Assembly: GCF_902506435.1 (NCBI RefSeq)
Contig: NZ_LR733215.1
Location: 198,459 to 262,458, forward strand
Direction: 5' to 3'
DNA from: Nocardioides sp. AX2bis
Lineage (GTDB): Bacteria > Actinomycetota > Actinomycetes > Propionibacteriales > Nocardioidaceae
DNA length: 64,000 bases
This document shows, one piece after another, positions 4,060-58,650 of this stretch. The notes beneath the pieces were generated by a model. It was not told the origin of the DNA. It searched no databases and saw only the letters and a list, made by a program, of their open reading frames with translations. Position 1 is the stretch's first letter, and each line of letters begins with the position of its first letter. Both the position numbers and the translations under genes were made by a program.

Positions 4060-4066
4060 GGGTCGC

Positions 4067-4105
4067 GTCGCGATCTGGTGTCACCTGGTGACACCAGATC
4101 GCGAC
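4067..4105. terminator. 18-bp perfect palindrome after the CDF gene
   Basis: Arms 4067-4084 and 4088-4105 pair perfectly around a 3-nt loop. It lies between the CDF stop and the malQ promoter, consistent with a terminator. No T-run follows. The core is the same as that of the palindrome at 2049-2087. Confidence 0.65.
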
Positions 4106-55007: not shown

Positions 55008-55838
55008 TCAGGCGTCGACGAGGTGCACGTCGCCGCTCACGGTGCTGACCCGCAGGGTCAGGTGGGGGCGGTCGTCGGTGGGCTCGCCGCGCGGGGAGGT
55101 GTCGGCGCGGACCGAGCCGGTGACGCTGGTGATGTCGGTCCACACGGGGAGGTCCGTCGGGATGGCTACCTGCACGTCGGTCGAGGCGCCGCGCAGGCTG
55201 ATCGTGCAGGGCGCGGCCCGGTCGACGACGACGTCGCCACTCCCGCTGGTCATCATGACGTCGCCGTGGTGGCGGGCCACGTGCAGGTCGCCGGACCCGG
55301 TCTTGACCGCGAGGTCGCCCTGTACCTCGCCGAGCCGGACGTCCCCGGAGCCCGTGGACACCGCGACGGCCGCCGAGGCGTGCTCGACGACCACGTCGCC
55401 ACTCCCGCTCTTGACCTGCAGCTCGCCCTGGACGCGGTCGAGGCGGACGTCGCCGGAGCCGGTCTCGACCAGGGTCGCCCCCGTGAGGGTGTCGACCGTC
55501 AGGTCCCCGCTCCCGCTGCGCAGGGAGCCTGCGCCGTACGAGCCCGCGGCCCGCAGGTCGGCGGTGCCGAGCCGCACGTCCAGGTCGCTGCCGGTGGGGA
55601 GCACGACGTCGACGTCGACCTCGACGTCGCGCTCGACGAAGCCGCGGTGCTGGGGCGCGGTCACCGACAGCACCCCGTCGTGGAGGTCGACCACGACGTC
55701 GCCGGCGTGCTGGCCGGCCACGCGGACCGACGTGCTGACGGTGTCCTCGGCCGTGACGGTCAGGCTGCCGCGGCCCAGGCGGGCACGGAGCCTGACGGGG
55801 GCGGTGGTGTCGAAGGCGTGGTCTCGGGCGGCGGTCAT
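55008..55838 (-). CDS. DUF4097-family beta-strand repeat protein
   Basis: A 276-residue protein built of short beta repeats with SGSGD (GSGDLTVDTL, GSGDVRLDRV, GSGDVVVEHA, GSGDVRLGEV, GSGDLHVARH, GSGDVVVDRA) at about 19-residue spacing (residues 107-210), which would stack as a right-handed solenoid. No signal peptide is seen. GAGGAG lies 5 nt before the ATG. In actinobacteria this gene often follows a HicB-like ribbon-helix-helix gene, and a remnant of such a gene lies 44 bp upstream here. Its native promoter may therefore be lost. Confidence 0.85.
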   Translation of the reverse strand: MTAARDHAFDTTAPVRLRARLGRGSLTVTAEDTVSTSVRVAGQHAGDVVVDLHDGVLSVTAPQHRGFVERDVEVDVDVVLPTGSDLDVRLGTADLRAAGSYGAGSLRSGSGDLTVDTLTGATLVETGSGDVRLDRVQGELQVKSGSGDVVVEHASAAVAVSTGSGDVRLGEVQGDLAVKTGSGDLHVARHHGDVMMTSGSGDVVVDRAAPCTISLRGASTDVQVAIPTDLPVWTDITSVTGSVRADTSPRGEPTDDRPHLTLRVSTVSGDVHLVDA

Positions 55839-55882: not shown

Positions 55883-56145
55883 TCAGAGCCAGCCGGTCGT
55901 ACGGCGGCCGGCACGGCGGCCGAACGGGTCGAACCCGCCGGCCAGCGGGCGGCTGGACAGGTCGACGTCGACCCGGGCGGCTCCGTCGCGGGTGGCGTCC
56001 CGGACGACGGTGACCAGCCAGGTGTTCAAGGACTGCCCGGCCCCGGCCGCGGCCTCCTCGGCCTTGTTCTTGAGGTGCTCGGGCAGCCGGAGCGTGATCC
56101 GGGCGACGCCGCCGTCCTCGTCGGACTCCGGCGGGGCGGGGGGCG
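55883..56145 (-). pseudogene. 5'-truncated HicB-like ribbon-helix-helix regulator
   Basis: The minus-strand frame encodes DGGVARITLRLPEHLKNKAE, then GQSLNTWLVTVVRDATRDG and FDPFGRRAGRRTTGWL, ending TGA at 55883. This is the C-terminal RHH half of the HicB-family protein usually found before DUF4097 genes; intact members carry roughly 70 further N-terminal residues. Reading upstream the frame enters the 44-bp repeat array at 56146 and meets a stop at 56231 without any ATG, GTG or TTG. The start and N-terminal half appear to have been replaced by the array. Confidence 0.72.
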
Positions 56146-56329
56146 CGAGACCAGGACCGGCGGTCGAGGAGCGAGCGCAGCGAGCATCACGAGACCAGGA
56201 CCGGCGGTCGAGGAGCGAGCGCAGCGAGCATCACGAGACCAGGACCGGCGGTCGAGGAGCGAGCGCAGCGAGCGTCACGAGACCAGGACCGGTGGTCGAG
56301 GAGCGAGCGCAGCGAGCGTCACGAGACCC
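56146..56329. repeat. tandem array: four 44-bp units plus 8 bp
   Basis: Units start at 56146, 56190, 56234 and 56278, each exactly 44 bp, and a fifth starts at 56322 but breaks off after CGAGACCC. Units differ only at single positions (GCATCA in units 1-2 versus GCGTCA in 3-4; CGGCGG versus CGGTGG in unit 4). The core TCGAGGAGCGAGCGCAGCGA recurs inverted at 58062, 58333 and 58481. There are no spacers between units, so this is not CRISPR. The gradient of changes suggests growth by unequal crossing over. Confidence 0.9.
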
Positions 56330-56358
56330 CTCCACAAGGGACATAGGTCCACTGACGA

Positions 56359-56374
56359 TCGAACGCATGTTCGA
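56359..56374. promoter_or_regulatory. perfect LexA/SOS box
   Basis: TCGAAC-GCAT-GTTCGA matches the mycobacterial LexA consensus TCGAAC-N4-GTTCGA exactly. It lies directly upstream of the -10 box TACACT (56376-56381), which is itself 6 nt before the ATG at 56388; CTGACG (56352-56357) is a candidate -35 at 18-nt spacing. LexA would cover the promoter, predicting DNA-damage induction of the HNH gene. Confidence 0.85.
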
Positions 56375-56387
56375 CTACACTAGATCC

Positions 56388-57953
56388 ATGACCACCACCC
56401 CAGACCAAAGCACCGGGCCCGACCCGATGCTCGACGTCGACGTGCAGGTGGAGGCCGTCATGTCCCCGGACCCCTCGTTCCTCGACTGGGTCCACGAGCT
56501 CGACAACCGCCGCGAAGCCACCAGGGCCGACGCACTCGCAGTCGTGAAGAACGCACGTGCAGTCCGCGCTGCCGCAGAGGTCGCGGTCCTGCAGTCGATC
56601 GTGGAGTGGTGCGTGATCAACGAAGCACTCCGCGACGACGAGGCCATGTGGATCGCCGGCTACGGCGACCACGGCCTGTCCCTCGGCGGTGCCGGGTGCC
56701 CCCTGGTCCGCGAGTCCGCGGTCATCGAGATCTCCGCCGTCTTAGGCGTCTCCACCCGCTCCGGTGCCGACCAGATCGCGATCACCCTCGAGCTCCGCTA
56801 CCGGCTCCCACTGTTGTGGGAACGCGTCATCTCCGGGGCCTGCCCGGTCTGGCGGGCCCGGCTCGTCGCGGAAAAGACCATGGCCCTGTGCGAGGACGGC
56901 GCCGCGGAGGTCGACCGCCTCGTCGCTCCGTTCGCCCACTCCATCTCTTATGCCCAGCTGTGCCGCCTGACCGACGAGGCGCTCTTGCGGTGGGACCCCG
57001 CCGCGGCGGAGGAGAAGCGGAAGGCTGCCGCCGACGGCAGGTACTGCCGCATCGGACTCTCGCAGCATGTCGACGGCACCGTGCAGCTCGACGCCGGACT
57101 CGACCTCGCCGACGCCCTGGCCCTCGAAGCAGCGGTCCGGGACCGGGCGAAGGCCTACGTCGACGACGGATCGACCGAGTCCCTCGACGTTCGCCGCTCG
57201 ATGGCCCTCGGCTCCCTCGCCCTCGGCGAGCAGACCCTGCCCACCGACAACACCGACACCGGGAAGACACCCACGGCGCCGGCGGGGCCGGTGGGGCCGG
57301 CCCTGGTGTTGTTCGCTCACATCCCCGGCGGGGTGTTCAACCCGCTCTTCCAGGCGGGCGCCGGCTCCGTCAATGACGCCCTGGTGTCGCGGTTGGACAA
57401 CCGGCACCCCGCCAAGGGCCCGATCACCACCGCGCAGGTCCGCGAGTGGGCGCGGACCGCGGCGAGCATCACGATCCGGCCGGTCCTGGACCTGGCCGAG
57501 ACGATCCACTGCGACTCCTACGAGTGCTCCGACCGCCTCAAGGAACAGACCCAGCTGCGCGACACCACCTGCGTCTTCCCGTGGTGCACCAACCCCGCAG
57601 TCTTCACCGACATGGAGCACGTGATCCCGTACCCCGAAGGGCCCACCCAGACCGGGAACGTCGCCCCCGCCTGCCGCACCCACCACCGCGCCAAGACCCA
57701 CATGGGCTGGGACTACGACGTCCTCGGCCCCGGGCTGTACCTGTGGACCAGTCCCCAAGGCGAGCGGTACCTGAGGTCCCACGCCGGGACCCACCCCATC
57801 GACCAGCTCCCGCCCGGGCCACCACCCGAACCCCTGCCCGAAGAACCGGACTCGACCCCGTACCCGGACCCGTCACCCCCGGCCGCAGACAACCCAGACG
57901 ACCCCGACCAACCCGACGAATCACCACCCCGCAACACCACCCCACCCTTCTGA
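56388..57953 (+). CDS. DUF222 / HNH endonuclease, 13E12 repeat family, SOS-regulated
   Basis: The 521-residue protein has a long N-terminal DUF222 region (residues about 20-330; SADQIAITLELRYRLP-like helical blocks) and a C-terminal HNH site: CVFPWCTNP, DMEHVIPYPEGPTQTGN and ACRTHHRAKTH (about residues 400-440), with all expected Cys, His and Asn present. The last 60 residues are Pro/Asp-rich and disordered. ATG 56388 follows TACACT by 6 nt. REP13E12 genes in mycobacteria are repeated, mobile-like and partly LexA-controlled. It is flanked by inverted copies of a repeat. The nuclease target is unknown. Confidence 0.9.
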   Translation: MTTTPDQSTGPDPMLDVDVQVEAVMSPDPSFLDWVHELDNRREATRADALAVVKNARAVRAAAEVAVLQSIVEWCVINEALRDDEAMWIAGYGDHGLSLGGAGCPLVRESAVIEISAVLGVSTRSGADQIAITLELRYRLPLLWERVISGACPVWRARLVAEKTMALCEDGAAEVDRLVAPFAHSISYAQLCRLTDEALLRWDPAAAEEKRKAAADGRYCRIGLSQHVDGTVQLDAGLDLADALALEAAVRDRAKAYVDDGSTESLDVRRSMALGSLALGEQTLPTDNTDTGKTPTAPAGPVGPALVLFAHIPGGVFNPLFQAGAGSVNDALVSRLDNRHPAKGPITTAQVREWARTAASITIRPVLDLAETIHCDSYECSDRLKEQTQLRDTTCVFPWCTNPAVFTDMEHVIPYPEGPTQTGNVAPACRTHHRAKTHMGWDYDVLGPGLYLWTSPQGERYLRSHAGTHPIDQLPPGPPPEPLPEEPDSTPYPDPSPPAADNPDDPDQPDESPPRNTTPPF

Positions 57954-58650
57954 CCCACTAACACTCAGCCGCAGCCATACCGCCGGACCGGGCACGCCCA
58001 CCGGCGATACCGGCACGCCCGGACCTCCCCCGGCCACCGCGGCCCACCCGCTGCCGCGACCGGTCTCGTGACGCTCGCTTCGCTCGCTCCTCGACCACCG
58101 AGGGCTGACCTCCGCTTCTCGACCGCCGAAGGCTGGCCTCCGCTCGTCGACCACCGGGAGCGCCGGTACCGGCGCCCCCGCGCCCTCGGGCTCTCGACTC
58201 GCGATCCGGTGCCACCTGCTGACACCGGATCGCAACCCGACCGCCCCCGCCGGCCCGGGTCACCGGCTGCCGTGGTCGATGTGATCTGCACTCATCGGGT
58301 GCACGCAGATCGCACATCGACTCACCGCGACTGGTCTCGTGACGCTCGCTAGCGCTCGCTCCTCGACCACCGGGCCGCCGGCGCTCGGTCGTCGACCACG
58401 GGATCAACCCGCCCGGGCGCAGACCCCCGCACGTCGACCTGACCGTTTCACGCACCAGGTGCGTGAAAGTCACAGGTCGAGGTCTCGTGACGCTCGCTGC
58501 CGCTCGCTCCTCGACCCCCGGGGCCACCGCTCTCCTCGACCACCGGGGCCAGTTCCCGCTCCTCGACCACCGGGCCTGCACCCGGGCCCAGACGCACCGC
58601 GGCCGCGACCCCCGTGGGGGCCGCGGCCGCGGTGAGGAGGCTGGGTCAGG
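57954..58650. repeat. gene-free repeat region right of the HNH gene
   Basis: About 700 bp with no credible gene. It holds three copies (58062-58100, 58333-58372, 58481-58520) of the core of the 44-bp repeat in inverted orientation, many short CTCGACCACCG-type fragments, and palindromes: 58201-58233 (core GATCCGGTG/CACCGGATC), 58276-58320 (imperfect), and 58446-58468 (11-bp perfect arms, 1-nt centre). Open frames across it are low-complexity Arg/Ser/Asp readings of the repeats. Confidence 0.8.
58595..58634 (-). terminator. GC-rich hairpin after the LVIVD-type gene
   Basis: Arms 58595-58612 and 58617-58634 pair at 17 of 18 positions with a 4-nt loop, 17 nt beyond the stop of the minus-strand gene. 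No T-run follows. Confidence 0.65.

What the first reader, a model, noticed from the sequence alone, without database searches (positions are those of the whole stretch)
55883..58520. SOS-controlled 13E12-type HNH element inserted into a HicB-like/DUF4097 locus and flanked by inverted repeats
Directly seen: a DUF222/HNH gene with a perfect TCGAAC-N4-GTTCGA box, four 44-bp tandem repeats on its left, three inverted copies of the repeat core on its right, and a ribbon-helix-helix gene whose start and N-terminal half are missing exactly at the array edge. Known: REP13E12/DUF222-HNH genes behave as repeated, mobile-like units in mycobacteria, and some are LexA-regulated. Inference: the segment between the repeats moved in, destroyed the regulator gene, and is mobilised or expressed on DNA damage, with the repeat core as its end or target sequence.
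Basis: partly seen in the sequence, partly recalled or inferred. Interest (0 to 1): 0.75.

Follow-up and report, generated by a model that had tools for sequence, protein, structure and literature searches.

The report
Nuclease gene carrying hairpin repeat arrays
In the soil bacterium Nocardioides, a nuclease gene with a DNA-damage control box is found in several copies together with short hairpin-forming DNA repeats, an association seen in many species of the genus that could help explain how such repeats spread and what this large, unexplained nuclease family does.

Summary
The segment is one of six close copies (89-97% protein identity, one a fragment) of an HNH-nuclease gene in a Nocardioides genome. 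Homology with the closest copy starts exactly at the repeat array (56146), so array and gene form one repeated unit; the copies are under purifying selection and each has a perfect SOS box.

The repeat belongs to a dispersed REP-like family of the genus: hairpins whose pairs covary. In this genome all 12 copies of two HNH/DUF222 groups carry it (upstream 44 '+', 0 '-'; downstream 22 '-', 1 '+'). Among 80 named HNH loci 52 carry a related repeat (upstream 109 '+', 11 '-'). No Y1 (RAYT) transposase was found here. I read the unit as REPtron-like, with an HNH nuclease in the transposase's place. The association is solid; the mechanism is inferred.

The 'insertion into HicB' is unsafe: relatives have the gene intact, but its missing half lies 19.5 kb away beside a single-N, fold-back join, so misassembly is possible. 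The protein fails the DUF222 model. Many repeats stand alone, some Nocardioides multiply HNH genes without them, and 29 of 30 DUF222 loci outside the family lack them.

The parts
55008..55838 (-). DUF4097 gene (left neighbour; not part of the unit)
   Evidence: Pfam PF13349 E 5.7e-19; same neighbour in relatives
55883..56144 (-). C-terminal part of a HicB-like ribbon-helix-helix gene, cut at the array edge
   Evidence: full-length relative L024 hits HicB at E 5.6e-4, just under cut-off
56146..56328 (+). Upstream array of four 44-bp units, each with one REP in '+' orientation (56162-56196, 56206-56240, 56250-56284, 56294-56328; positions read from the sequence)
   Evidence: left limit of homology with paralog L012
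56359..56374 (+). SOS-type box TCGAACGCATGTTCGA
   Evidence: perfect box in all six A copies of this genome
56388..57953 (+). HNH nuclease gene (group A, 521 aa); D408, H411, H432, H433 invariant and N424 nearly invariant in 17 sequences
   Evidence: dN/dS 0.16-0.27 among the six A copies
58062..58096 (-). Downstream REP, inverted
58188..58246 (.). Palindrome P1, also found at other REP clusters
58272..58330 (.). Palindrome P2
58333..58368 (-). Downstream REP, inverted
58425..58485 (.). Palindrome P3
   Evidence: matches L137 at 100% over 57 bp
58481..58516 (-). Downstream REP, inverted

Best explanation
A multi-copy HNH-nuclease element of the 13E12/DUF222 kind in Nocardioides. The unit is: array of REP hairpins in one orientation, SOS box, HNH gene, and in 9 of the 12 group A and B copies of this genome REPs in the opposite orientation on the 3' side (group B lacks the SOS box). 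Shown: array and gene lie together in one stretch of homology between copies; REPs sit next to HNH genes in many species of the genus with a strong upstream orientation bias; the REP is a covarying hairpin. Inferred: after DNA damage LexA release makes the nuclease; it recognises or cuts REP DNA, perhaps as a single-stranded hairpin; break repair or strand transfer then copies the REP-gene unit, and REPs alone, to new places. This is the role proposed for RAYT transposases with other REPs, but with an HNH nuclease. Whether copying is by homing-like gene conversion or by transposition is not decided.
For: Five further copies at 89-97% protein identity; homology with L012 starts exactly at the array; all six A and all six B copies carry REPs and all six A copies a perfect SOS box; own orientation: upstream 44 '+', 0 '-', downstream 22 '-', 1 '+' (one of the 22 lies beyond an N join). 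Own genome: 12 of 18 HNH/DUF222 loci within 1 kb of a REP against 0.56 expected, maximum 5 in 20,000 placements (98 sites used of 168). Other REP-bearing species: 15 of 27 distinct HNH loci with REPs, 0.01-0.08 sites expected per locus. Named set: 52 of 80 loci, upstream 109 '+' and 11 '-', 3.42 sites per 10 kb against 0.27 and 0.16 in control loci, 0 of 80 in reversed sequence. Covariation: 78 of 80 and 74 of 80 Watson-Crick at the two variable arm pairs against 48.8 and 41.5 expected. No Y1_Tnp in the genome. A REP cluster with an internally deleted DUF222 gene inside (L132). Purifying selection. REPs in frame inside HNH genes.
Against: HNH genes multiply without these REPs: G018 has 37 matches and 0 strict REPs; among its eight fetched copies the only flanking 16-mers shared by four or more lie within about 36 bp of the match. 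28 of 80 named loci have no REP. In this genome the five more distant HNH/DUF222 loci L006, L007, L017, L018 and L019 have none. 0 of 30 repeat-centred loci hold an HNH gene. 29 of 30 DUF222 loci outside the family have no REP, and the one hit is isolated. REP class need not follow the HNH lineage: near copies L264 and L267 in one genome carry different classes, and groups A and B share one REP here. Downstream orientation is unbiased in the named set. Other transposases were not searched for. No biochemical evidence.
Confidence: 0.38

Rival explanations
1. Passive co-location: REPs are spread by an unidentified agent, and HNH genes duplicate by recombination and gene conversion between copies; both collect at the same permissive intergenic sites, and the array is copied only as a neighbour.
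For: Many REPs are solo; HNH genes multiply without REPs; REP class can differ between near copies in one genome. In M. tuberculosis, REP13E12 loci are gene-conversion hot spots (PMC13061034, passages).
Against: Upstream orientation bias, 109 to 11 in the named set and 44 to 0 in this genome, and the fall of upstream '+' sites from 101 within 750 bp of the match to 8 beyond; the same upstream polarity in this genome and six others.
Confidence: 0.3
2. The upstream REPs are cis-regulatory hairpins (terminator, insulator or mRNA structure) kept because they control a possibly harmful, SOS-regulated nuclease gene.
For: 89 of the 109 upstream '+' sites lie within 500 bp of the match, near the SOS box where there is one; hairpin structure is conserved by covariation.
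Against: 28 of 80 loci lack them; many copies are solo and some lie in frame inside HNH coding regions, which fits spreading DNA better than a regulator.
Confidence: 0.17
3. One reading: a 2.4-kb element with repeat ends moved cleanly into the HicB-like gene and destroyed it.
For: Intact gene in 28 of 28 relatives whose region is whole; 16 of 16 fetched relatives lack the segment between the halves; homology between copies starts at the array.
Against: Gene halves 19.5 kb apart, not 2.4 kb; far half ends at a single N and a fold-back; an N inside another HNH copy joins a group-A 5' part to a group-B 3' part (L016/L008), probably a false join, so joins at these genes cannot be trusted.
Confidence: 0.1
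4. Host DNA-repair nuclease: the HNH genes serve SOS repair, as proposed for mycobacterial 13E12 genes, and the repeats are incidental.
For: SOS-like boxes at 30 of 80 loci with at most 1 mismatch; purifying selection; a mismatch-repair role was proposed for LexA-controlled 13E12 HNH genes (PMC4181829, passage).
Against: Up to 37 matches in one genome and species-specific expansion look selfish rather than like a housekeeping repair set.
Confidence: 0.05

Closest known systems
REP13E12 / 13E12 HNH genes of Mycobacterium tuberculosis
   Same: Multi-copy HNH genes, several LexA-controlled and described as having characteristics of mobile elements (PMC5005354, passage); listed among repetitive elements (PMC10589994, passage).
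   Different: No M. tuberculosis sequence was compared here. Flanking REP arrays were not mentioned in the passages read.
REPtrons (RAYT gene flanked by GTAG-type REPs)
   Same: A DNA-acting enzyme gene flanked by dispersed hairpin repeats, with many solo repeats elsewhere (compare PMC3733652: abstract, sections 6 and 16 and passages seen).
   Different: The enzyme is an HNH-type protein; no Y1_Tnp was found in this genome.
CGTC-tagged REPs
   Same: Hairpin repeats; CGTC follows the core hairpin in one class here; they are reported to lack a dedicated transposase (PMC3733652, abstract and section 16).
   Different: Here the tag's last base varies and pairs with the other arm, the repeat is longer (mostly 33-36 nt in the strict class), and the words Actinobacteria and Nocardioides do not occur in that paper's main text.

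Membership tests
DUF222 (PF02720) | Match over the Pfam cut-off | tested here: not met
   Window protein: no match at E<=1. Group B (L001) matches at 2.5e-26. Remote relation A-B by hhalign.
HNH nuclease | HNH active-site motif | tested here: met
   D408, H411, H432, H433 invariant and N424 nearly so in 17 sequences; phrog_333 HNH E 3e-4; but Pfam HNH is below its cut-off (E 0.042). Activity not tested.
REP13E12 family of mycobacteria | Sequence membership of the named repeat family | not tested
   No mycobacterial copy was fetched; the likeness is functional and from the literature.
REP elements | 20-40 bp palindrome in many dispersed copies | tested here: met
   168 copies of the core in this genome with up to 2 mismatches, control 1+1; strict form in 20 of 116 genomes; covarying stem in the genus. 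In this genome itself the commonest cores have no perfect stem above 3 pairs.
REPtron (RAYT) | Y1 tyrosine transposase gene | tested here: not met
   PF01797: 0 matches in the own genome; control rings in 5 of 14. Not searched in the other species.
CGTC-REP super-family | Unpaired CGTC-type tag at one end of an 8-9 bp stem | tested here: not met
   The last tag base is C, G or A and pairs with the other arm in 78 of 80.
Insertion sequence | Terminal inverted repeats, target-site duplication, transposase | tested here: inconclusive
   Inverted REPs flank 8 of 12 copies of this genome on both sides but this is not general; no empty site could be read because of the N join; transposases other than Y1 not searched.
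HicB antitoxin | HicB RHH domain over cut-off | tested here: inconclusive
   Full-length relative L024: 20.2 bits against a cut-off of 21; the window fragment has no hit. No toxin partner was looked for.
Known anti-phage defence | PADLOC model match | tested here: not met
   No match at E<=0.01.

The most novel reading that the evidence does not exclude
Nocardioides HNH proteins are the enzymes of a REP system without a Y1 transposase: SOS-induced nucleases that act on REP hairpins and copy both REPs and their own REP-flanked genes, a second, independent kind of REPtron.
Probability: 0.27. Interest if true: 0.85.

Novelty: new variant of a known kind. Interest (0 to 1): 0.6.

Why it matters
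HNH genes of the 13E12/DUF222 kind are numerous in actinobacterial genomes and have, to my knowledge, no settled function. How REPs spread where no RAYT partner exists is an open question stated in print for CGTC REPs (PMC3733652). An orientation-biased link between the two across many Nocardioides species makes both questions testable with one purified protein and one oligonucleotide. Searches that listed no paper on such a link, by title and abstract start: HNH endonuclease with repetitive extragenic palindromic or Nocardioides, REP elements with RAYT, Actinobacteria and HNH, REPIN with RAYT (10 of 18 listed), DUF222, 13E12 terms. The library is open-access only, and I did not read these papers through.

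Tried and rejected
Structure: AlphaFold model of the window protein, mean pLDDT 70.5; Foldseek against PDB gave no match at E<=0.001; no PDB relative by profile at E<=0.01. Uninformative.

Strict REPIN idea: that mixed solo clusters are always '+ then -'. In this genome 4 of 4 mixed clusters among the 20 solo regions fetched fit (L130, L132, L137, L142), but for neighbours within 300 bp the named set has 19 '+-' and 12 '-+', and the repeat-centred set 3 and 2, so I do not claim it generally.

REP-HNH co-evolution: REP class is clustered on the HNH tree (44 rows; 15 changes, shuffled mean 26.5, 0 of 200 as low), but rows from one genome are not independent and near copies can differ, so I do not use it as proof of recognition.

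Origin of the 17-kb block right of the element: its LVIVD-type gene has a match in 9 of 24 other genomes, one of them weak; the ORFs downstream of it in 8 of these loci match no own locus held, so misassembly against rearrangement stays open.

The broad REP pattern has some chance hits in coding sequence (L283 inside the gene, L296, L298); they were left in the counts.
Full report
1. The observation. All items are present: SOS-type box 56359-56374, four 44-bp tandem units 56146-56328, three inverted copies at 58062, 58333 and 58481 (0.18 expected for seven found), the HNH gene 56388-57953, and an RHH gene remnant ending at the array. The protein itself does not match DUF222; a second, true DUF222 group (B) exists in the same genome.

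2. A multi-copy unit. The window protein has five further close copies in this 4.2-Mb genome (97, 94, 91, 91 and 89% identity; one is a fragment), three distant ones at 35% and a 30-residue remnant. Nucleotide homology of the window locus with the closest copy (L012) begins at locus position 1259, which is window 56146, the first base of the array. All six A copies have a perfect SOS box; A and B copies (six each) carry the same REPs; B loci show no box with fewer than 2 mismatches of their own; the distant loci L017, L018 and L019 have a box with 0 or 1 mismatch, L006 and L007 with 2, and these five have no REPs. In gene orientation the 12 A and B loci have 44 '+' and 0 '-' REPs upstream, 22 '-' and 1 '+' downstream; L012 and L015 have none downstream, L004 none upstream, and L005 is the exception downstream; the one of L016 lies beyond an N join. 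dN/dS among A copies is 0.16-0.27.

3. The repeat is a REP family. The core occurs 168 times in the genome with up to 2 mismatches, control pattern 1+1. The strict form (arms GGTCGAGGAG and CGTCACGAGACC, free core) occurs in 20 of 116 genomes including the own one, all of one genus, with 0 in the reversed control. In a phylum sample a relaxed form occurs in 7 of 396 including the own genome, some of these clearly chance. Named relatives of the HNH gene show that the genus is, or is close to, Nocardioides. Other classes differ in arm and core in a compensating way: over 80 unique repeats the two variable arm pairs are Watson-Crick in 78 and 74 (48.8 and 41.5 expected), and core pairs 0-4 in 79-99%. 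An inner stem of 5 or more pairs is present in 56% of 140 unique repeats against 11% of shuffles. In this genome the commonest cores have no perfect stem of more than 3 pairs; read by eye they are palindromes interrupted by tandem G-A mismatches, which is my reading and not a test. Unique repeats are not phylogenetically independent.

4. Association with HNH genes. Own genome: 12 of 18 HNH/DUF222 loci lie within 1 kb of a REP against 0.56 expected (98 of the 168 sites were used; L015 also has REPs, making 13). Only 38 of these 98 sites lie by such a gene. Other REP-bearing species: 28 rows and 5 more make 27 distinct loci, of which 15 have one or more REPs, 0.01-0.08 sites expected per locus; sites before the match are '+', those inside or beyond it 7 '-' and 2 '+' (each gene counted once). 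Named set: the best 80 of 579 relatives, often several per genome; 52 have a REP of the broad form; upstream 109 '+' and 11 '-', inside 11 '-' and 5 '+', downstream 14 '-' and 15 '+'; 89 of the 109 lie within 500 bp of the match start; density 3.42 per 10 kb against 0.27 in 29 and 0.16 in 16 control loci; reversed control 0 of 80. With the strict class alone, one mismatch allowed per arm, it is 13 of 80. Limits: 0 of 30 repeat-centred loci hold an HNH gene (at most two places per genome, the first listed ones, from 20 genomes, one of them the own); G018, with 37 HNH matches, has no strict REP and its eight fetched copies share 16-mers only within about 36 bp of the match; among 30 DUF222 loci of other families one isolated hit was seen.

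5. REPs inside the nuclease genes. In several species a REP lies in frame, without stops, between the N-terminal part and the HNH domain, read as peptides such as GFETGLRPSSTT (L227, L230, L233), GRVAGEERAGVSRP (L274, L289, L301) or GSRDGRCATSSTT (L174, L187); L301 has two in opposite orientation; L247, L302 and L306 hold a stop in the stretch. In alignment A1 the REP-coded stretch of L174 and L187 is an insertion relative to most others. This fits REPs as mobile DNA.

6. The HicB-like gene. In 28 of 28 relatives whose region is whole an intact RHH frame of about 180-260 codons precedes DUF4097 (L049 is cut by a contig end). In 16 of 16 20-kb regions the two halves are adjacent and none of the genes of the 17-kb block is found there; L099 has an HNH gene a few kb away, not between the halves. 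In this genome the N-terminal half is at C8:274139-274423, 19.5 kb right of the C-terminal half, on the same strand, next to a single N at C8:274057 and a fold-back copy of itself. Another N (C8:3589077, L016/L008) joins a group-A 5' part to a group-B 3' part, probably falsely. I therefore rate a real insertion into this gene and a misassembly about equally likely; the statement that the regulator was destroyed remains open.

7. Mechanism. The facts that need explaining are that array and gene lie in one repeated unit, the upstream polarity, and the covarying hairpin. A nuclease acting on REP DNA explains all three and gives the SOS control a purpose; the HNH loci without REPs and the freely varying REP classes speak against strict dependence. 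I put the REP-acting nuclease at 0.38, passive co-location at 0.30, cis-regulation at 0.17.

8. Known ground. LexA control of 13E12 genes in M. tuberculosis is in print (PMC5005354 and PMC4181829, passages), as are their repeated nature (PMC10589994, passage) and gene-conversion hot spots (PMC13061034, passages). REPtrons and CGTC REPs: PMC3733652 (abstract, sections 6 and 16, passages). No title or abstract start listed names a link of REPs to HNH genes.

Noticed in passing
58188-58246, 58272-58330, 58425-58485; also 4061-4104 and 2054-2082: Three other palindromes between the downstream REPs (fold -26 to -33 kcal/mol). P1 recurs at several REP clusters and, at 84-90%, at two places elsewhere in the window; P3 recurs at 100% over 57 bp in L137.
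   Followed up: partly
L132 (G000:C8:1593200-1596300): REP cluster (seven '+', one '-') enclosing a DUF222 gene with an internal deletion (residues 1-74 and 318-424 left), like a MITE derivative.
   Followed up: partly
L016/L008, G000:C8:3587978-3589439: A single N joins a group-A HNH gene to the 3' end of a group-B DUF222 gene: probably a chimeric scaffold join.
   Followed up: partly
L227, L230, L233, L234, L274, L281, L286, L289, L301, L174, L187: REPs in frame inside HNH genes, coding for linker peptides.
   Followed up: partly
   Followed up: partly
L130, L137, L142: Solo clusters of '+' then '-' REPs with about 170-550 bp between and no HNH/DUF222 remnant found by tblastn.
   Followed up: no
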